From: a virus
Strand: one strand, 5' to 3'
Virus record (IMG/VR): IMGVR_UViG_3300045996_001685
Coordinates: 1-56,111 of that record
Length of the DNA stretch: 56,111 bases
Part shown: piece by piece, positions 1 through 56,111 of the stretch
Position numbering within the stretch: the stretch's first letter is position 1
Layout of the letters: the number at the start of each line of letters is the position of its first letter
Made by a program: the position numbers and the translations under genes
Notes under the pieces: model-generated
Databases searched by the model: none
Seen by the model: only the letters and a program-made list of their open reading frames with translations
What the model was told of the DNA's origin: nothing

Positions 1-181
1 GACGGACATGCGGCAGCGCCACGTGCCGTGCCCCTACTGCGGGGCGTTGCAGGTCCTTGAGTGGTCGCGGGTCGAGTGGGACAAGGACGAGACGGTATCG
101 CCGCACAAGCATCTCGTGGAGACGGCGCGGTATCGGTGCGCGCACTGCCCTGAGGCTTGGACGGACGCGGACAGGTGGGCG
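1..181. repeat. Left copy of terminal redundancy
   Basis: These 181 bases are repeated at 55931-56111. The copies differ at one base seen by eye (C at 128, A at 56058), which changes a CGG arginine codon to AGG. The repeat marks the join of a circular assembly of about 55,930 bp; it need not be a physical terminal repeat. Confidence 0.95.
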
Positions 182-1312
182 GCCGACCGTCACCCGGATG
201 CGTGCTGGATAGCTCAGCGGCCGTTCGAGGGGCGCGCCGGGTTTCAGATTTCGCAGCTTTACAATCCCTGGAAGCGCCTTAGCGAGCTCGCGACAGAGTT
301 TCTTGCCAGCCGCGGCAATGTCGAGCGCGAGAAGGTCTTCACCAATACCGTTTTGGGCTTGCCGTACCGGGTGACGGGTGAGGCGCAGGACCCCGATCGA
401 CTGTATGAGCGCCGCGAGACTTATCGCATCGGCGAGGTGCCACCGCGCGGGCTCGTGCTGGTCGCTGGGATTGACGTGCACCCGGACCGTATCGAGGGCG
501 AGGTCGTCGCGTACGGCCGCGGCCTTGAGAGCTGGTCCATTGAGCGGGTGCTGATCAAAGGGGACCCACTGGCGCGCGCCACGTGGGACCAATTCGACGT
601 CCAGGTGCGCAACGAAAGCTGGGAGGGGGCTGACGGCTATCCTCACCGACTGTCGCGCATCGCTATCGACACGGGTTATGCCTCGCCGGCAGTCTCTGCC
701 TACTGGCGCCGCGTCCAAGACCACCGCGTGATGCTAGTCAAAGGCGATCGTAATCGCGACCGGCCGCTGAGCCCGCCCAAGTGGATTGACCTTAGCTATG
801 GCGGCAAGGTCATCAAGAAGGGCGTGCAGTTGCAGTCAGTGGGCGTCGATTGGTTCAAGGACGAGCTCGACGGGTTCTTGCGGCTGCCGATGCCTGATGA
901 AGGTCGTCCGGCTCCGGGGTACTGCCACTTTCCTATGTATCCTCGCGAGTTTTTCGATCAGCTCACCGCGGAGGAGCGCGTGCTCGAGAGCACGACTTCG
1001 GGTGCCGGCAAATACAAGTGGGTTAAGGTCCGCGAGCGAAACGAGGCGCTAGACTGCCGGGTGTACGCGCGGGCCGCGGCCATGTCGCTCCGGCTGGATA
1101 TGCGCCGTGACGCCGAGTGGCGGGCAATCGAGGAGCAGGTAGGGGCACAGGTGGTCGAGGACGTCCAACCGTGGTCGCCTCCTCCTCCGCCGGCCGAGCC
1201 CGAGCGGACGGCACCGGCAGCCCGGCCGGCTGCCTACTCGCCGCCGGCGATGCAATCGGGGCAGTCTGTGCAATTTAGGGGCGGTCGCCGTATGCACACG
1301 GCGCGGTTTTAG
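1..1312 (+). CDS. terL: Terminase large subunit, C-terminal part (GpA family)
   Basis: This is the 3' two-thirds of the packaging ATPase/nuclease. Its 5' part lies at 55239-56111 and the frame is continuous across the join, giving about 667 aa, normal for lambda gpA-like terminases. Numbered from the putative start at 55239, a zinc-ribbon-like set of cysteines (C241, C244, C277, C280) is followed by the nuclease domain, whose first acidic motif is GIDV (D389) with a later AIDTGY motif. The C-terminal tail is proline-rich. The gene stops at 1312, 8 bp before gpW. The protein docks on the portal and cuts and pumps concatemeric DNA. The family call rests on the N-terminal motifs and gene order. 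Confidence 0.95.
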   Translation, partial: TDMRQRHVPCPYCGALQVLEWSRVEWDKDETVSPHKHLVETARYRCAHCPEAWTDADRWAADRHPDACWIAQRPFEGRAGFQISQLYNPWKRLSELATEFLASRGNVEREKVFTNTVLGLPYRVTGEAQDPDRLYERRETYRIGEVPPRGLVLVAGIDVHPDRIEGEVVAYGRGLESWSIERVLIKGDPLARATWDQFDVQVRNESWEGADGYPHRLSRIAIDTGYASPAVSAYWRRVQDHRVMLVKGDRNRDRPLSPPKWIDLSYGGKVIKKGVQLQSVGVDWFKDELDGFLRLPMPDEGRPAPGYCHFPMYPREFFDQLTAEERVLESTTSGAGKYKWVKVRERNEALDCRVYARAAAMSLRLDMRRDAEWRAIEEQVGAQVVEDVQPWSPPPPPAEPERTAPAARPAAYSPPAMQSGQSVQFRGGRRMHTARF

Positions 1313-33657: not shown

Positions 33658-34839
33658 ATGAAGAGGTTTGTAGGGGCGGCGCTGCTAGCGGCGTGCTTTG
33701 CGGGGGGAGCTCATGCCCTCCCGATTACCGACGGGACCCCGGTCGGCCACGCGGTGTGGGGCAACTTCGTCGGCAATCACACTATGGGCGGGCCGAACCT
33801 CTCCCGGGTCGCGCTGACCGGGAAGAACATGTTCGGCTCGCAAGTGTGCTTTGATCGGATCGAAACGCACTTCATTGCTGAGGCTGGCGGGACGGGTTAC
33901 TCGGCGGGCAATGGTGGTAGCGTCCGGGTCGGGGTCCACTCTCTGAACGCCGACGGCAGCCCGAACGCGCTCGTCGGCGGCTGGACGCCCCTCTACAGCC
34001 CGAACCTCGTCAATGGTTGGATCACAGCCCAGCAGACGGTGCCAGGGACCTTGTGGCCGGAGCTGTATTTCAGCTCGCCCGCATGCCTATCCGCCGGCCA
34101 GAAATTCGCGCTGGTCTACGAGAACGGCGCGGGATCGCCAGCAACTAACTATATGGGCGTGAATACACGAGGCGTCTCACTGCCGGCCAACTCCCCGGCG
34201 GTCGATCCCGTGTGGACCGTGTGGCAGAAGCACGGGGCTAATGCATGGTTCGAACGTACGTGGCCAACGGAGAGTCACGTCCCGACGTTTCGTCTTTGCG
34301 ATGGTCCTCCTCCAAACGGCCAGTGCATCGGACAGCCGTATATGGAGAGGGCGGACCCGAAGTCAGTCGGCGGCAGCGTCCAGGTTTGGCAGGAGGTGCG
34401 GAGCTCTACGACCCGGACGTGTCAGACGCTGCGGCTGACGCTGTCCCGTCGGTTGTCGACGGGGACGGTCGTTCGGCTGGGAGTCCGGAGCCTGACCGGC
34501 GGGTTCTTGGCCGGCCAGTATGTGGACGTCAGCCTCTCGGGGTTGCCCGTGGTCGGCACGGACCCGAACCTCGGCCCGTTCACTGTGAGCGAGGTCGTCG
34601 GCACCCTCCCGTCTGCAGTCACGCTGACGGCCAACACGACCTATAGGTTGTGGGCGGGCAATGGTGCGGCCGGGAGCTTGTGGTTCTCGCCGATGCAGTC
34701 GGGGTATCCGGACTATTTTGAGACGGATGAGAGCTACGGGGGCACGACCCTAAAGGCGCGCTACTCGCCCGACAACGACGCGACCCGGTTGGATTGGGAC
34801 GCCGAGACCATTCACGACCTGCAATTCTACTGCGAGTAA
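33658..34839 (+). CDS. Sec-exported beta-rich protein of unknown function
   Basis: The 393-aa product has a typical signal peptide (MKRFVGAALLAACFAGGAHA, likely cut after Ala20), followed by two beta-sandwich-like halves with cysteines spaced as for disulphides (QVCFDRIET, PACLSAG, RLCDGP, GQCIGQ, TCQTL, FYCE). The last gene of the rightward late operon, it is exported rather than virion-assembled, or acts as a periplasmic protein. A bacterial-type secreted protein here is unusual. AGGAG lies 9 bases before the ATG. Confidence 0.7.
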   Translation: MKRFVGAALLAACFAGGAHALPITDGTPVGHAVWGNFVGNHTMGGPNLSRVALTGKNMFGSQVCFDRIETHFIAEAGGTGYSAGNGGSVRVGVHSLNADGSPNALVGGWTPLYSPNLVNGWITAQQTVPGTLWPELYFSSPACLSAGQKFALVYENGAGSPATNYMGVNTRGVSLPANSPAVDPVWTVWQKHGANAWFERTWPTESHVPTFRLCDGPPPNGQCIGQPYMERADPKSVGGSVQVWQEVRSSTTRTCQTLRLTLSRRLSTGTVVRLGVRSLTGGFLAGQYVDVSLSGLPVVGTDPNLGPFTVSEVVGTLPSAVTLTANTTYRLWAGNGAAGSLWFSPMQSGYPDYFETDESYGGTTLKARYSPDNDATRLDWDAETIHDLQFYCE

Positions 34840-42526: not shown

Positions 42527-42766
42527 ATGGAACACGATGGCTTTCAACGGTGGCGGACCTGGATGGGCTGGACGCAAGACAGGGCCGCGAAGGCGCTTGG
42601 GGTCACCCCGCGCACTGTCCGCAACTATGAACAGGGGAAGCAAGACGTTCCCCAAGCGGTTGCGCTGGCGTGCTGGGCATTGATGCGAGGAGTAAGAGAG
42701 TTTGACGGACCAGCTCTAGAAGAGATTGGGGCCGCCACACCTCCCGATTTGCAAGCATCGTCGTGA
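42527..42766 (+). CDS. XRE/Cro-like helix-turn-helix regulator
   Basis: The 79-aa product contains a clear helix-turn-helix: WMGWTQDRAAKALGVTPRTV (about 12-31), followed by RNYEQGKQDVPQAV. It lacks a C-terminal oligomerisation or RecA-sensitive cleavage domain, so it is Cro-like rather than a full CI repressor. It is transcribed away from the leftward operon, with two dyads in the 104-bp gap between them. No second, divergent repressor gene was found. Only weak ribosome-site similarity precedes the ATG. Confidence 0.82.
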   Translation: MEHDGFQRWRTWMGWTQDRAAKALGVTPRTVRNYEQGKQDVPQAVALACWALMRGVREFDGPALEEIGAATPPDLQASS

Positions 42767-43229: not shown

Positions 43230-43718
43230 GTGTCCGATACTGTGATAGGGTCGCCCGCCTACCTAAGGGCACTCCAGCGGGCACGGCGGCACCTCGACGC
43301 CACCGCACCACCGAAGAAGGGAAACCCGATGAACGGCCACGACAAGCTTTTGCTCGTGGGGATGGTCCAAGAGCTGCAGGAACTCGACGAGCGCCGGCGG
43401 GAGCTGAGCCAACAGAAGTCGGAGATTATGCGCAACGCGGTCGACCGCGGCTTTAGTCGCGCGGCACTGCGTGAGGTGCTCCGGCGCATGAAGATGGACG
43501 CAGCCGACCGCGAAGACCACGAGCACCTCGTCGACGAGTACATGCTCGCGCTGGGCATGACTCCCCTCGAGCTCGAAATCGAGCGCGACCGGCAGGCTGC
43601 GGAGGCTACGGTTAGAGTTGAGGCAGCGGTCGAGGAGCACGCCCCTAAGCCGCCAGTGGCGAGCCGGAGCCGGCGCAAGCCGGACACGGAGCCGGTCGCC
43701 GCCTCCTCCCTCAACTGA
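43230..43718 (+). CDS. GapR/DUF2312-like nucleoid-associated protein
   Basis: The 162-aa product has a GapR core at about residues 34-110: ELQELDERRRELSQQKSEIM, RGFSRAALREVLRRMKMD and HLVDEYMLALGM, closely following the family pattern of a paired helical DNA-binding protein. It is flanked by an N-terminal extension of about 33 aa and a C-terminal extension rich in Ala/Pro/Glu. GAGGAGG lies 6 bases before GTG 43230, and AAGGGA precedes an internal ATG at 43329 that would make the core alone. GapR binds overtwisted DNA ahead of polymerases in Alphaproteobacteria. Confidence 0.78.
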   Translation: MSDTVIGSPAYLRALQRARRHLDATAPPKKGNPMNGHDKLLLVGMVQELQELDERRRELSQQKSEIMRNAVDRGFSRAALREVLRRMKMDAADREDHEHLVDEYMLALGMTPLELEIERDRQAAEATVRVEAAVEEHAPKPPVASRSRRKPDTEPVAASSLN

Positions 43719-44245: not shown

Positions 44246-45079
44246 GTGTCGATCATCAACCGTATCGAGAAGGCAGTTACCGAGCTCGTCAGCCTCAGGA
44301 GTGCGGAGTGGCTGGCCGAGCACCTCAGCGACACGGCATGCCGCCAGCGCAAGGCGCTAGGTCGCCCGGCTCAACGTACGCGCATCAGCAAGGCCGGCCA
44401 AACCAAGCCGTGCGAGCTCGAGGGGTGCGAGAACCTGCTCACGCGCACGCCGCGGATGAGCGAAAAGCAGTGGGCCGGAAAGCACTACTGCAGCAACCTG
44501 TGCTCGGGGCTGGCGACCGCGGCCAAGCGGCGGGCGGATGCAGCCGCCACCGTCGCAACTCGACGTGAGGCCGCCGGCGCCGTTCCTTGCAAGCGGTGTG
44601 CTCGGCCGGGGTGCGTCCAGAAATTTGCCAAGCCCGCCAAGTCGACCCTGCGCCAGTGGCAGTTACAAAAATACTGCTCGGCCGCGTGCTACCACCTCCG
44701 CAACCATCCGGTCGGCGTCGAGGTGGCTAAGCCGGAGGTCCGCGAGGAGGTCCGGCCGGAGCCGGTGGTCGAGATGGTGGTCGAGGAGGCCCGGCCCGAG
44801 CCCGTCGAGGCGGAGCGGCTCGTGCCACGGGAGGTGCCAGTAGAGCCGGCGAGCTCTCCCACTGAGCCGGCAGCGGGCGACCCCTACGACGAGGCACTTC
44901 AGGACCGCATCCCCGACCTGCTCGCCCGTGGCGCCACTGACGCGATCCTGCGCCGGACCCTGCGACTCGATGCGGAGGGGCTGGCCGTCGCCCGGCGCAT
45001 CAAGCAAGAGCGCATGCTCGCCGCACGTCGGCAGCGCGACGCCAAGATGGCCGATATGTTCGTGCACAAGGGGTTCTGA
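44246..45079 (+). CDS. Two-zinc-finger protein with HTH-like C-terminus
   Basis: The 277-aa product has two similar treble-Cys modules, about 57-87 (CELEGCENLLTR ... HYCSNLC) and about 116-149 (CKRCARPGCVQKF ... KYCSAACY), each with the pattern of MYM-type zinc fingers. A Glu/Pro-rich spacer follows, then a helical C-terminus with a resolvase-like turn (LLARGATDAILRRTLRLD) and RRIKQERMLAARRQRD. The last 29 residues recur in a short ORF at 45395. It probably binds DNA or RNA; the role is unknown. Start GTG 44246. Confidence 0.65.
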   Translation: MSIINRIEKAVTELVSLRSAEWLAEHLSDTACRQRKALGRPAQRTRISKAGQTKPCELEGCENLLTRTPRMSEKQWAGKHYCSNLCSGLATAAKRRADAAATVATRREAAGAVPCKRCARPGCVQKFAKPAKSTLRQWQLQKYCSAACYHLRNHPVGVEVAKPEVREEVRPEPVVEMVVEEARPEPVEAERLVPREVPVEPASSPTEPAAGDPYDEALQDRIPDLLARGATDAILRRTLRLDAEGLAVARRIKQERMLAARRQRDAKMADMFVHKGF

Positions 45080-45080
45080 G

Positions 45081-45398
45081 ATGCGTTACGCGTTCGTATG
45101 GTCATTCCTGCTCGTGGCGCCGGCCGCAGCCCAGGAGCACCCGCTGAACCACGACCCCTATACGGGCTGGCGGCAGCCGGGTGGTTTCGGCGAGTGCTGC
45201 CACCGCCAGCACTGCAGGCGGAGCAGCTACTGCCCACTGCCGGACGGCGGCGTCGGGCTGATGCTCGACGGCTCGTGCATTCCGATCCCGGAAGAACTCA
45301 TCGTGCCGCATCCCTCGCCCGACGGCTGGCCGCACATATGCGCCGAGAACGATGGCACGGTGCTGTGCGTGGTTGTGCCCGAACCGAAATCGGCATGA
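45081..45398 (+). CDS. Periplasmic seven-cysteine protein, copy 1
   Basis: The 105-aa product has a signal peptide (MRYAFVWSFLLVAPAAAQ, likely cut after Ala17 or Gln18). The mature part begins EHPLNHDPYTGWR and has seven cysteines in the order CC-X4-C, C, C (in DGSCIPIP), C (in HIC) and C (in VLC). It matches a small secreted family known to me from rhizobial genomes, with YTGW, CIP and SPDG...HIC motifs, but no function is known. It is exported early in infection, so envelope modification or exclusion of other phages is a reasonable guess. A paralog follows at 45508. Confidence 0.7.
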   Translation: MRYAFVWSFLLVAPAAAQEHPLNHDPYTGWRQPGGFGECCHRQHCRRSSYCPLPDGGVGLMLDGSCIPIPEELIVPHPSPDGWPHICAENDGTVLCVVVPEPKSA

Positions 45399-45508
45399 GC
45401 ATGAAACTGCCTTGCGAGTTCCGGCGCATCAAACAGGAGCGGATGCTTGCCGCACGTCGGCAGCGCGACACCCGCACGGCCGAGACATTCATTCACCGGG
45501 GGTTTTGA
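45395..45508 (+). CDS. 37-aa mosaic ORF at duplication joint
   Basis: The reading frame MSMKLPCEFRRIKQERMLAA onward joins a MKLP-type start (as at 45818) to the last 29 residues of the zinc-finger protein (44246). It ATGA-overlaps copy 1 and TGATG-overlaps copy 2 but has no good ribosome site. It is probably a by-product of the duplication, possibly translated by coupling to keep the second copy expressed. Confidence 0.45.
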   Translation: MSMKLPCEFRRIKQERMLAARRQRDTRTAETFIHRGF

Positions 45509-45816
45509 TGCGCGCACGGATTGCTTTGACGTTGCTTCTGGCGTCGCCGGCTGCTGCCGACGGTTACTATACCGGCTGGACGGCACTAGACGGGACGTCC
45601 TGCTGTGATGAGAGCGACTGCGCCCCGGCCGTGTGGTCGATCGGCGAGGATGGGGTCGCATGCGTGCGGATGCCCGACGGACAGTGCATCCCCGAGCCCT
45701 ACGACCGGGAAATCCCGGTGAACCATCCAGACGGCCGGGCGCACATTTGCGCCCGCCAAGCCTATCCGCACGGTCCGTGGTTTGTCCTGTGCTGGACACC
45801 CGGCAGGGGGACCTAG
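45508..45816 (+). CDS. Periplasmic seven-cysteine protein, copy 2
   Basis: The 102-aa product has a signal peptide (MRARIALTLLLASPAAAD, likely cut near Ala17), then YYTGWTALDGTSCCDESDC, DGQCIPEP, NHPDGRAHIC and VLCW. All seven cysteines of copy 1 are kept although other residues differ widely, which indicates selection on the fold. The odd number of cysteines leaves one free for an intermolecular bond. Role as for copy 1. Confidence 0.7.
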   Translation: MRARIALTLLLASPAAADGYYTGWTALDGTSCCDESDCAPAVWSIGEDGVACVRMPDGQCIPEPYDREIPVNHPDGRAHICARQAYPHGPWFVLCWTPGRGT

Positions 45817-45817
45817 C

Positions 45818-46030
45818 ATGAAACTACCCACTGAGTTTCGGTTGCTGCGGCCAGACGAGTACGCAGAGAGCACCCTGCAAGTCTATCTAACCGTGCCCGT
45901 CCGGGACGACGAGGGGTGCTGGAGTGCCTATCCGGTCGCCGCGGCAGACATGCCGCTCGGGACCCGCGACGAGCTCGTGCGGCTGGCCACGGAGCGCGCC
46001 CGGGCGGCCGGCAGGAAGGTGAGCGGATGA
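45818..46030 (+). CDS. Small hypothetical protein
   Basis: The 70-aa product begins MKLPTEFRLLRPDEYAESTL and has a beta-rich centre (LQVYLTVPVRDDEGCWSAYP) then a basic helix. Its first eight residues match the start of the mosaic ORF at 45401. ATGA coupling links it to the methyltransferase gene. Function unknown. Confidence 0.6.
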   Translation: MKLPTEFRLLRPDEYAESTLQVYLTVPVRDDEGCWSAYPVAAADMPLGTRDELVRLATERARAAGRKVSG

Positions 46031-46584
46031 GGTACAGGGTCGTCTATGCTGACCCACCATGGACGTTCGCTACCTACTCGGCCAAGGGCAAAGGCAAGAG
46101 CCCGGAGCGGCACTACCAGTGCCTCACCCTCCCCGAAATCAAGGCGCTGCCCGTCGCCGAGCTCGCGGCCGACGATTGCGCCTTGTTTCTGTGGGTGACC
46201 ATGCCGACGCTGCCGCAAGGGCTCGAGGTTATCCGGTCGTGGGGGTTTACCTACAAATCCCGGGCGTTCTGCTGGGCCAAGCTCACCAGAACCGGCAAGC
46301 AATGGCATTTTGGGTGCGGTTACTCGACCCGCAAGAACCCCGAGGATTGCCTGCTAGCCACGCGTGGCCGACCGCGCGTGCTCGACCGGGGGGTGCCCGA
46401 GCTCATCGTGGCGCCCGTGCGGGAGCACAGCCGCAAGCCCGACGAAGCGCGCCAGCGTATCGAGCGGCTCTTCGCCGGGCCGCGCGTGGAGCTCTTCGCC
46501 CGCCAGCGCTGGCCGGGTTGGGAGGTGAGGATGTCCGATCAGCCCGAGCACTTCGCAGAAGTAACGAACCAAGCAACCCTTTAA
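46027..46584 (+). CDS. MT-A70-family adenine methyltransferase
   Basis: The 185-aa product has the catalytic DPPW motif at residues 9-12 (VVYADPPWTFATYS), FLWVTMPTLPQGLEVIRSWG, FGCGYSTRKNPEDCLLATRG and a final PRVELFARQRWPGWE, all hallmarks of MT-A70/Ime4-type N6-adenine methyltransferases. No restriction enzyme gene is adjacent, so it is an orphan; protection of phage DNA against host restriction is the usual explanation. Start ATG 46027 overlaps the preceding stop. Confidence 0.88.
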   Translation: MRYRVVYADPPWTFATYSAKGKGKSPERHYQCLTLPEIKALPVAELAADDCALFLWVTMPTLPQGLEVIRSWGFTYKSRAFCWAKLTRTGKQWHFGCGYSTRKNPEDCLLATRGRPRVLDRGVPELIVAPVREHSRKPDEARQRIERLFAGPRVELFARQRWPGWEVRMSDQPEHFAEVTNQATL

Positions 46585-47531: not shown

Positions 47532-47746
47532 AATTGCCGGCATGGCTTGCTGTAGTTGTAGCGGCATGCGCAGTTCTGTCGACTGCTGCCCTAGTTTGGC
47601 CTTACGTCGAGGGGGCAATGTCGCGCAAGAAGCACGCAAACGTATACAGGATGTCGGAGCTTATGTGCGGCCTTCCAGGCGTTGACCCTGGATACTGTAT
47701 GGAGAAACGGCGGCTTGAAGACCTGTACGGCTTTCGGCCTCGCTAG
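47528..47746 (+). CDS. Small membrane-anchored protein
   Basis: The 72-aa product has one N-terminal hydrophobic segment (LAVVVAACAVLSTAALVWPY) that could be a membrane anchor, and an exposed part with two cysteines (ELMCGLPGVDPGYCMEKRR) that may pair outside the cytoplasm. ATG at 47528 overlaps the preceding stop. With the adjacent genes it may belong to an envelope-modifying set. Function unknown. Confidence 0.6.
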   Translation: MKLPAWLAVVVAACAVLSTAALVWPYVEGAMSRKKHANVYRMSELMCGLPGVDPGYCMEKRRLEDLYGFRPR

Positions 47747-47762
47747 ACACAAGGGAACACCG

Positions 47763-48752
47763 ATGAGCACTCCCGCACTGATTTTCTTTCAGGCTGACAC
47801 CCTGGCACGACCGCCGCGCCTCCTCCAAAATCGCGCGCACGTTGAGACGCTGCCGTTTGACGGGCTCGTGATCAACATCCCGGCTTCCTATACCGTGTCG
47901 CGAGCGTCAACGCGGCTCGACTATGCCGACACTCGGCGTTGGCTGACGCTCGACGGGATGTACTCAAAGCTTAATCAAAGCTACCTTCTAGCCTACACCG
48001 CCCACGAGGAGTCGCCCCCGGATGTGTTCGACTCCCAAGAGCGGTTAATCACCAACTGGCGGTTGCTGGCGCGAGCAGCTCGAGAAGCCGGGATGCGTGG
48101 GCTGTTTGTCGATAACGAACCATACGACACCCGCGCCCTCGAGTTCCCCGACGGCGCGCGGTGGCCGGAGTTCGGTCTGGCTCGGTATCAGCGGCAAGCC
48201 CGGTCGGTCGGGAGGTGGGTAATGGACGGCATACTCAAGGAGTGGCCTGAGGCACATGTTATCGTCGCCCATGGGCCGTATGTGAGCGAGCCAAAGACAC
48301 CCCGCGAGGTCTCGCTCCTGCAAGTCGAGACAACCCCGTATGACCTTCGCGGGCACTGGTTCTCGGGGATGGCGCAAGCATCGGGTAACGGTCAGCTGGT
48401 CGACGGAGGCGAGGTCTACCAGTACCGGACACGCGAGGACTTTGTGCGCTCGAGGCAGTGGCGGGAGACCGGGTTGCCTCAAGTCCCGTCTAGCACGGTC
48501 GTGCCTTCCCCGCTGCGTCGGACGTGGCGGGACCGGGTGTCGATCGGGTTTGGCGTCTACGATCGGCCGTGGAAGGCCGGCTACGAGATGAACCCGGAGG
48601 TGCTCGAAACCACGCTCACCAACGCGCTGGCCGTCGCTGAGGACGTGGTGTGGCTGTACACTGACGGCTCCGGAGGCGGGCGTTACCTCGACCCGCTGAC
48701 GGTCGACTCGGCGTATGTTGATGTCGTGCGTCGAGCGCGCGGCGCTGGCTGA
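47763..48752 (+). CDS. TIM-barrel glycosidase-like protein in early region
   Basis: The 329-aa product shows strand-helix alternation typical of glycoside hydrolase barrels: ALIFFQAD, DGLVINIP, MRGLFVDNEPYD (with a possible acid at the end of strand four), AHVIVAHGP, GEVYQYR, VSIGFGVYDRP and DVVWLYTDGSGG. The catalytic pair is not certain. It has no signal peptide. Coding such a protein among replication genes is unusual; it might degrade an internal polymer or be a virion protein expressed early. ATG 47763 is preferred to an upstream in-frame ATG at 47682, which lies inside the previous gene. Confidence 0.6.
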   Translation: MSTPALIFFQADTLARPPRLLQNRAHVETLPFDGLVINIPASYTVSRASTRLDYADTRRWLTLDGMYSKLNQSYLLAYTAHEESPPDVFDSQERLITNWRLLARAAREAGMRGLFVDNEPYDTRALEFPDGARWPEFGLARYQRQARSVGRWVMDGILKEWPEAHVIVAHGPYVSEPKTPREVSLLQVETTPYDLRGHWFSGMAQASGNGQLVDGGEVYQYRTREDFVRSRQWRETGLPQVPSSTVVPSPLRRTWRDRVSIGFGVYDRPWKAGYEMNPEVLETTLTNALAVAEDVVWLYTDGSGGGRYLDPLTVDSAYVDVVRRARGAG

Positions 48753-55242: not shown

Positions 55243-56111
55243 TTACGCAGTCTGCGGCGGTCCCCGAGTTTCATCGGGCGACCGTCGAGGCGCTGACAAA
55301 GGTTTTCACGTCTCCGCCCAAGGTGAGGCTGTCTGAGTGGGCGGACCAGCACCGTCGGCTTAGTCCGGAGGCGAGTGCGGAGCCGGGCGCGTGGCGTACC
55401 GATCGGGTGCCGTACCTCCGCGAGCCGATGGACTGCGTTACGGATGACGCTTGCGAGCAAATCGTGTTGTGCGCGAGCTCGCAGAGTGCAAAAACCGAGC
55501 TGCTGTTGAATGCTGAGGCGTATTTTATCGCCAGAGAGCCGTGCCCAATCCTGCACGTAACGCCTCGTGTAGAGGACTGTAAGGGGTATTCTAAGGACCG
55601 TTTGGCGCCGATGCTGCGTGATACGCCCGTGTTGCGGGGTCTTGTGCACGAGGCGAGGGCTCGGGATAGCGGCAATACTGTGCTCCACAAGCTCTTCCCG
55701 AACGGTCATTTGACGCTTGCGGGCGCTAATTCGCCGGCTGGCTTGGCGATGCGGCCGATCCGGGTGCTGCTCCTCGACGAGGTGTCGCGGTATCCGGCCA
55801 GTGCGGGCACGGAGGGCGACCCGGTCGAGCTCGCGACCAAGCGGACGACGACGTTTCTCAGCCGCAAGATCATCATGGCATCGTCGCCGGGGCTCGAGGG
55901 GCAGTGCCGGATCACCGCGGCGTATCTCCAGACGGACATGCGGCAGCGCCACGTGCCGTGCCCCTACTGCGGGGCGTTGCAGGTCCTTGAGTGGTCGCGG
56001 GTCGAGTGGGACAAGGACGAGACGGTATCGCCGCACAAGCATCTCGTGGAGACGGCGAGGTATCGGTGCGCGCACTGCCCTGAGGCTTGGACGGACGCGG
56101 ACAGGTGGGCG
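55239..56111 (+). CDS. terL: Terminase large subunit, N-terminal part (GpA family)
   Basis: The frame is open from 55161 with no ATG, GTG or TTG before the conserved region. The likely start is ATA 55239, with GAGGG 4-5 bases upstream and a 4-bp overlap with terS. Motifs then follow the GpA order: LSEWADQHRRLSPEASAEPG, the Walker-A-like loop SSQSAKTE with K85, and Walker-B LLLDEVSRYP with D180-E181. It continues at position 1 after the join. It translocates DNA into the procapsid at the expense of ATP. Confidence 0.92.
   Translation, partial: MVTQSAAVPEFHRATVEALTKVFTSPPKVRLSEWADQHRRLSPEASAEPGAWRTDRVPYLREPMDCVTDDACEQIVLCASSQSAKTELLLNAEAYFIAREPCPILHVTPRVEDCKGYSKDRLAPMLRDTPVLRGLVHEARARDSGNTVLHKLFPNGHLTLAGANSPAGLAMRPIRVLLLDEVSRYPASAGTEGDPVELATKRTTTFLSRKIIMASSPGLEGQCRITAAYLQTDMRQRHVPCPYCGALQVLEWSRVEWDKDETVSPHKHLVETARYRCAHCPEAWTDADRWA
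55931..56111. repeat. Right copy of terminal redundancy
   Basis: Repeat of positions 1-181 with a single substitution at 56058 (A for C), which is silent in terL. It shows that the contig ends overlap. Confidence 0.95.

What the first reader, a model, noticed from the sequence alone, without database searches (positions are those of the whole stretch)
44992..45841. Recent-looking tandem duplication of a periplasmic seven-cysteine protein gene
A unit of about 430 bp is duplicated within the early operon. Each copy codes for a Sec-exported protein of about 85 mature residues that keeps all seven cysteines and the YTGW, CIP and PDG..HIC motifs, while the rest has diverged strongly. Early expression of an exported, disulphide-rich protein is typical of superinfection exclusion or envelope-defence factors, but none is described with this pattern. 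Two diverged copies suggest diversifying targets.
Basis: partly seen in the sequence, partly recalled or inferred. Interest (0 to 1): 0.75.

Follow-up and report, generated by a model that had tools for sequence, protein, structure and literature searches.

The report
Paired exported-protein genes in a phage
A phage thought to infect alphaproteobacteria carries two side-by-side, strongly diverged genes for a small disulphide-rich protein that is probably exported to the cell envelope; it belongs to a widespread family with no name in the databases searched, found in phages, often beside their cell-lysis genes, and on bacterial chromosomes.

Summary
The repeat is real. A 429-bp unit (44992-45420, 45421-45841) is repeated head to tail. 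Each copy carries the tail of the upstream zinc-finger-like gene, one exported-protein gene and the first codons of the next gene, fused at the junction into a 35-aa hybrid ORF. The two exported proteins (mature 88 and 85 aa) are 39% identical. Each has seven cysteines, of which six align; the fourth has moved.

They belong to a large family (signal peptide, CC-x3-[D/H]C ... DGxxHxC ... C) with no Pfam, PHROG, NCBIfam, PADLOC or fold match. I recovered about 200 relatives in uncultivated phages and alphaproteobacterial chromosomes, plus one isolated phage (Pam5). Mature cysteine number is almost always odd (5 or 7). Phage copies recur beside endolysin genes (6 of 13 testable records within 1 kb; p about 3e-5, threshold chosen after seeing the data) or in early operons near RuvC, CII or a zinc-finger gene, as here.

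Flanks are about 80% identical while the genes' synonymous sites look saturated. This suggests two divergent alleles stacked by unequal recombination rather than a recent copy, but the contrast is not significant.

Best guess: a periplasmic protein acting on murein hydrolases or phage entry (confidence 0.35). Function is untested.

The parts
44992..45420 (+). Repeat unit, copy 1: tail of upstream gene, exported gene 1, first codons of next gene
45421..45841 (+). Repeat unit, copy 2 (as far as homology extends)
44246..45079 (+). 277-aa gene with two Cys-rich treble-clef-like (zinc-finger-like) motifs; its last 28 codons are the start of the repeat unit
   Evidence: weak zf-CGNR match (E 0.03, below cut-off); homologue in the same place in L176 (E 3e-10)
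45081..45398 (+). Exported protein gene 1 (105 aa; mature about 88 aa, 7 Cys; has the family's conserved His before CC, has H instead of the near-invariant D before the third Cys)
45401..45508 (+). Hybrid 35-aa ORF across the junction (MKLPCEFR + RIKQERMLAARRQRDTRTAETFIHRGF); its TGA overlaps the ATG of gene 2
   Evidence: sequence read directly
45508..45816 (+). Exported protein gene 2 (102 aa; mature about 85 aa, 7 Cys; lacks the near-invariant His, keeps the Asp)
   Evidence: structure model
45818..46030 (+). 70-aa gene MKLPTEFRLL..., whose first codons are the right end of the unit
42527..42766 (+). Cro/CI-like HTH gene at the start of the rightward operon
   Evidence: HTH_3
43230..43718 (+). 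GapR-like DNA-binding protein
   Evidence: PF10073
43744..44244 (+). RuvC-like resolvase
   Evidence: phrog_159
46027..46584 (+). MT-A70 DNA methyltransferase, downstream end of the neighbourhood

Best explanation
The two genes are divergent members of an unnamed family of small Sec-exported, disulphide-stabilised beta proteins. Phages carry them as periplasmic accessory factors, either in the lysis cassette or, as here, in an early operon. Most likely mechanism (inferred): after export the protein folds oxidatively in the periplasm and binds a murein hydrolase or another envelope component, either curbing the cell-wall-cutting step of a superinfecting phage (working like T4 Spackle) or tuning the phage's own lysis. 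The tandem pair most likely arose when two divergent alleles were joined by unequal recombination at the flanks, so that the phage carries two versions with different partners. Shown: repeat, family, predicted fold, genomic contexts. Inferred: periplasmic location, partner, phenotype, recombination route.
For: Family membership: 65- and 116-sequence alignments and profile hits in genomes. Confident beta-rich models of both copies (pLDDT 87 and 84, cores 90-95). The Spackle paper describes bacterial lysozyme inhibitors as mainly beta-sheet, and Spackle itself as a disulphide-bonded periplasmic early protein that inhibits the gp5 tail lysozyme (PMC7677548). Endolysin neighbours verified in 15 phage loci plus L269 and the isolated phage Pam5. 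In whole records 6 of 13 family genes lie within 1 kb of a GH24 endolysin, 0.67 expected, p 3e-5. Early-operon homologues with a CII-like gene (L125) or RuvC (L096, L009) nearby. Same zinc-finger-plus-exported-gene order in the L176 contig. Allele stacking: flank dN 0.17 and dS 0.48 against gene dN 0.70 and saturated dS; each copy scores higher against other phages' proteins than against its sibling.
Against: No biochemical or genetic evidence exists here. Foldseek finds no similarity to lysozyme inhibitors or any PDB entry. The window copies lie about 20 kb from the presumed lysis region. Chromosomal homologues in bacteria could mean a general periplasmic role. The flank-versus-gene synonymous difference is not significant (Fisher p 0.15), and a W1+W2 clade is not rejected (AU p 0.08 and 0.23), so in-place duplication stays possible. 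The 1-kb endolysin threshold was chosen after seeing the distances.
Confidence: 0.35

Rival explanations
1. Superinfection exclusion at the receptor or DNA-entry step rather than at murein: the exported protein binds an outer-membrane receptor plug or an inner-membrane entry protein, working like Cor/Llp.
For: Early-operon position, export, rapid divergence and two versions in one phage fit receptor or entry-protein coevolution; the small periplasmic phage lipoprotein Llp jams FhuA this way (PMC9586334).
Against: No lipobox in either copy (signal ends PAAA followed by Q or D); recurrence next to endolysins and on host chromosomes is not expected of a receptor blocker.
Confidence: 0.25
2. A host-derived periplasmic housekeeping protein (metal or redox handling) captured by phages as cargo. 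The odd cysteine with conserved His and Asp would form a thiol or metal site.
For: Chromosomal members occur in 5-10% of sampled alphaproteobacterial/Hyphomicrobiales genomes (lower bounds); one lineage places the gene next to prfB (PCRF/RF-1); mature Cys is 5 or 7 in 191 of 199; near-invariant H, D and H in A3.
Against: Phage copies sit in lysis or early modules; each window copy lacks one of the conserved ligand-type residues (copy 1 has H for D, copy 2 has D for H), so a fixed site is doubtful. The search patterns themselves imposed several of the conserved residues.
Confidence: 0.25
3. Component of the lysis machinery itself: a periplasmic regulator of endolysin or spanin, in the manner of an antiholin or accessory spanin.
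For: In several records (L062, L082, L095, L085) it closely follows an endolysin and an Rz-like gene (Rz read by eye; endolysins verified).
Against: In this window and in L125, L096, L009 and L176 it is in an early or replication operon, away from lysis genes.
Confidence: 0.15

Closest known systems
T4 Spackle (Sp), superinfection-exclusion inhibitor of the gp5 tail lysozyme
   Same: Small, early, Sec-exported, periplasmic, disulphide-containing phage protein
   Different: Spackle is an alpha-helical bundle with one disulphide (PMC7677548); this family is predicted beta-rich with 5 or 7 cysteines; no sequence relation found
Cor / T5 Llp superinfection-exclusion lipoproteins
   Same: Small phage-encoded envelope protein of comparable size
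   Different: Those are lipoproteins; neither window copy has a lipobox; no sequence relation found
Bacterial lysozyme inhibitors (Ivy, MliC, PliC, PliG, PliI)
   Same: Small, exported, mainly beta-sheet; occur in proteobacteria
   Different: No credible Pfam match for any relative and no Foldseek match for the two models
Unnamed alphaproteobacterial/phage family CC-x3-DC ... DGxxHxC ... C (this work)
   Same: Both window proteins are clear members (phmmer 1.6e-15 and 1.8e-19 to L110)
   Different: Window pair: tandem copies, long branches, displaced fourth cysteine in copy 2, reciprocal loss of near-invariant His (copy 2) and Asp (copy 1)

Membership tests
Unnamed CC/DC/DGxxHxC exported-protein family | Sec signal peptide followed by CC-x3-[D/H]C, DGxxHxC and a C-terminal Cys | tested here: met
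Unnamed CC/DC/DGxxHxC exported-protein family | Odd number of mature cysteines (5 or 7) | tested here: met
   (191 of 199); both window copies have 7
Unnamed CC/DC/DGxxHxC exported-protein family | Significant sequence similarity to members outside the window | tested here: met
   E down to 1.6e-15 and 1.8e-19 (against an 82-sequence set)
T4 Spackle | Alpha-helical bundle fold | tested here: not met
   Models of both copies are beta-rich
T4 Spackle | Inhibits a phage tail lysozyme in the periplasm | not testable with these tools
   needs protein and enzyme assays
Cor / Llp lipoproteins | Lipobox and N-terminal lipidated cysteine | tested here: not met
   Signal peptides end PAAA|Q and PAAA|D; the first Cys is residue 22 or 15 of the mature protein (sequence read directly)
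Bacterial lysozyme inhibitors | Sequence match to an inhibitor family in Pfam or NCBIfam | tested here: not met
Bacterial lysozyme inhibitors | Fold match | tested here: not met
   Foldseek PDB, none at E <= 0.001
Bacterial lysozyme inhibitors | Inhibits a lysozyme | not testable with these tools
   enzyme assay needed

The most novel reading that the evidence does not exclude
A large, unnamed protein family is a modular periplasmic murein-hydrolase or phage-entry inhibitor shared between alphaproteobacteria and their phages, and phages broaden its range by stacking divergent alleles in tandem through recombination at conserved flanks.
Probability: 0.2. Interest if true: 0.75.

Novelty: new variant of a known kind. 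Interest (0 to 1): 0.5.

Why it matters
The family has roughly 200 relatives from a few capped searches, two recurring phage contexts and chromosomal homologues, yet no Pfam, PHROG, NCBIfam or PADLOC entry and no solved fold. If it acts on murein hydrolases or phage entry it would be an unrecognised layer of phage-phage or phage-host competition in Hyphomicrobiales, and a tandem pair of alleles in one phage would make its specificity directly testable.

Tried and rejected
Single-protein and two-sequence scans of viral and genome collections found nothing, nor did a DNA pattern for PDGRAH[IV]C; they were too strict for so divergent a family, and the spaced CC...DC...DG..H.C pattern worked. tblastn of six members against GenBank phages gave only Pam5 at E <= 0.01. 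I considered a mature N-terminal histidine (histidine brace as in LPMO/CopC) and dropped it: the conserved His is internal in the Bradyrhizobium type and in copy 1, and absent in copy 2. I considered simple positive selection after duplication; synonymous sites between the genes look saturated too, which amino-acid selection alone would not explain. RuvC and zinc-finger genes gave no closer phage with a single copy; four phages with a 38-43% identical capsid protein lack the family. A first endolysin test on partial loci was only borderline (p 0.053) and was replaced by the whole-record test. The tree could not settle whether copies 1 and 2 are sisters.

Full report
Observation. The window is a 56-kb virus record. 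At 44992 a unit of 429 bp begins and is repeated once, head to tail. Its left end is the last 28 codons of a 277-aa gene with two Cys-rich zinc-finger-like motifs, its body is one exported-protein gene, and its right end is the first codons (MKLPxEFR) of the next gene. At the junction these ends are fused in frame into a 35-aa hybrid ORF (45401-45508) whose stop codon overlaps the start of gene 2, so gene 2 may keep a translational-coupling context like that of gene 1 (inference). The alignment of the units is far beyond shuffled controls.

The proteins. Both copies have a signal peptide ending in PAAA, no lipobox, and mature parts of about 88 and 85 residues; they are 39% identical. Both have seven cysteines but only six align; the fourth is SSYC in copy 1 and GVAC in copy 2. 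AlphaFold2 gives confident beta-rich models for copy 2 (pLDDT 87) and copy 1 (84). Foldseek finds nothing at E <= 0.001 in the PDB for either model, or in viral models for copy 2.

The family. Pfam, PHROGs and NCBIfam hold no credible match for the copies or for 65 family members, and PADLOC none for 116 members. A spaced DNA pattern built from CC, xC, DG, H and C recovered about 80 relatives in IMG/VR and 120 matches in genome contigs whose titles point to alphaproteobacteria, mainly Mesorhizobium, Bradyrhizobium and Sinorhizobium; profile search found a member in each of 120 loci. Profile searches of sampled genomes give at least 15 of 289 in the class and 15 of 150 in the order; these are lower bounds because only some candidates were scored. 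One isolated phage, Pseudanabaena phage Pam5, carries an unannotated member two genes before its endolysin. That phage was found by sequencing in a mixed plaque of a cyanobacterial culture (PMC9382816), so its host could be questioned.

Conserved features. In the 116-sequence alignment five cysteines are invariant, and an upstream His, Asp before the third Cys, and the DG and H of DGxxHxC are at least 90% conserved. Caution: CC, the third Cys, DG, H and the Cys of HxC were required or favoured by the search patterns; the upstream His, the last Cys and the number of extra cysteines were not. The mature cysteine number is 5 or 7 in 191 of 199 distinct members, and most exceptions are truncated or miscut. 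Extra cysteines thus come in pairs and one cysteine is left over, which suggests a free thiol, metal site or intermolecular bond (inference). Copy 1 has His for the near-invariant Asp; copy 2 has Asp for the near-invariant His.

Genomic contexts. (a) Lysis cassette: verified endolysins lie within three genes in 15 phage loci, in some in the order endolysin, Rz-like, family gene, then a packaging-type gene (by eye). In whole records that hold a GH24 endolysin, 6 of 13 family genes lie within 1 kb of it, 0.67 expected, p 3e-5; the 1-kb limit was set after seeing the distances. (b) Early operon: a CII-like activator next to L125, RuvC within two genes in L096 and L009. The window belongs here: Cro-like HTH, GapR, RuvC, zinc-finger gene, copies 1 and 2, MT-A70. 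L176, a Microvirga MAG contig with a weak repressor-like HTH gene upstream, has the same zinc-finger gene directly before a seven-Cys member. (c) Chromosome: in one lineage the gene follows prfB. A single Microvirga MAG holds all three contexts: L267 after prfB, L269 next to a GH24 lysozyme, and L176. 'Early' is inferred from gene content, not measured.

How the pair arose. 47 of 48 phage records have one copy; one has a second, weak match. Between genes 1 and 2, codons for identical residues agree at the level codon usage alone would give (17 of 33, expected 15.3), while the tail keeps 15 of 20 (expected 8.6), with dN 0.17 and dS 0.48 against 0.70 and about 1.4 for the genes (the tail values were in the wrong frame and are replaced). 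Each copy scores higher against other phages' proteins than against its sibling. This fits two divergent alleles joined by unequal recombination better than a recent in-place duplication. The evidence is suggestive only: Fisher p 0.15, AU p 0.08 and 0.23, both branches long. A tandem pair also exists on a bacterial chromosome (G116, L258), so in-place duplication may occur in the family.

Function. Export, disulphides, early or lysis position and rapid divergence fit a periplasmic factor that meets phage or host envelope enzymes. T4 Spackle is the closest functional analogue, but Spackle is helical (PMC7677548); Llp and Cor are lipoproteins (PMC9586334). I therefore file it in neither family. 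I favour a murein-hydrolase or phage-entry modulator at 0.35, with receptor-level exclusion, a captured periplasmic housekeeping protein, and lysis control as rivals.

Verdict. What is new is the size, contexts and odd-cysteine rule of an unnamed family; what is missing is any functional test.

Noticed in passing
window 55323-56111 (+) and 8-1312 (+): The two ends of the window hold the N-terminal (GpA ATPase) and C-terminal parts of the large terminase gene, so the record is probably a near-complete, circularly permuted genome cut inside terL.
   Followed up: partly
window 45401-45508: The hybrid ORF at the junction keeps all of the first 16 tail residues (RRIKQERMLAARRQRD) with only synonymous changes, so it may itself be translated or its DNA constrained.
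   Followed up: partly
L146, L140, L143, L165 and other Bradyrhizobium loci: A small single-zinc-finger gene lies directly upstream of the chromosomal family member in at least 11 loci, recalling the zinc-finger gene upstream of the window pair.
   Followed up: no
L258 (G116:C1:3288575-3289423): A second tandem pair of the family, on a bacterial chromosome.
   Followed up: partly
window 33658-34839 and 47682-48752: Two larger proteins of 393 aa (signal-peptide-like start; no Pfam match) and 356 aa (no PHROG or Pfam match).
   Followed up: no
L261:5001-5330 (Pseudanabaena phage Pam5, UQS95236.1): An isolated phage carries an unannotated family member two genes upstream of its endolysin; a possible experimental model.
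   Followed up: partly
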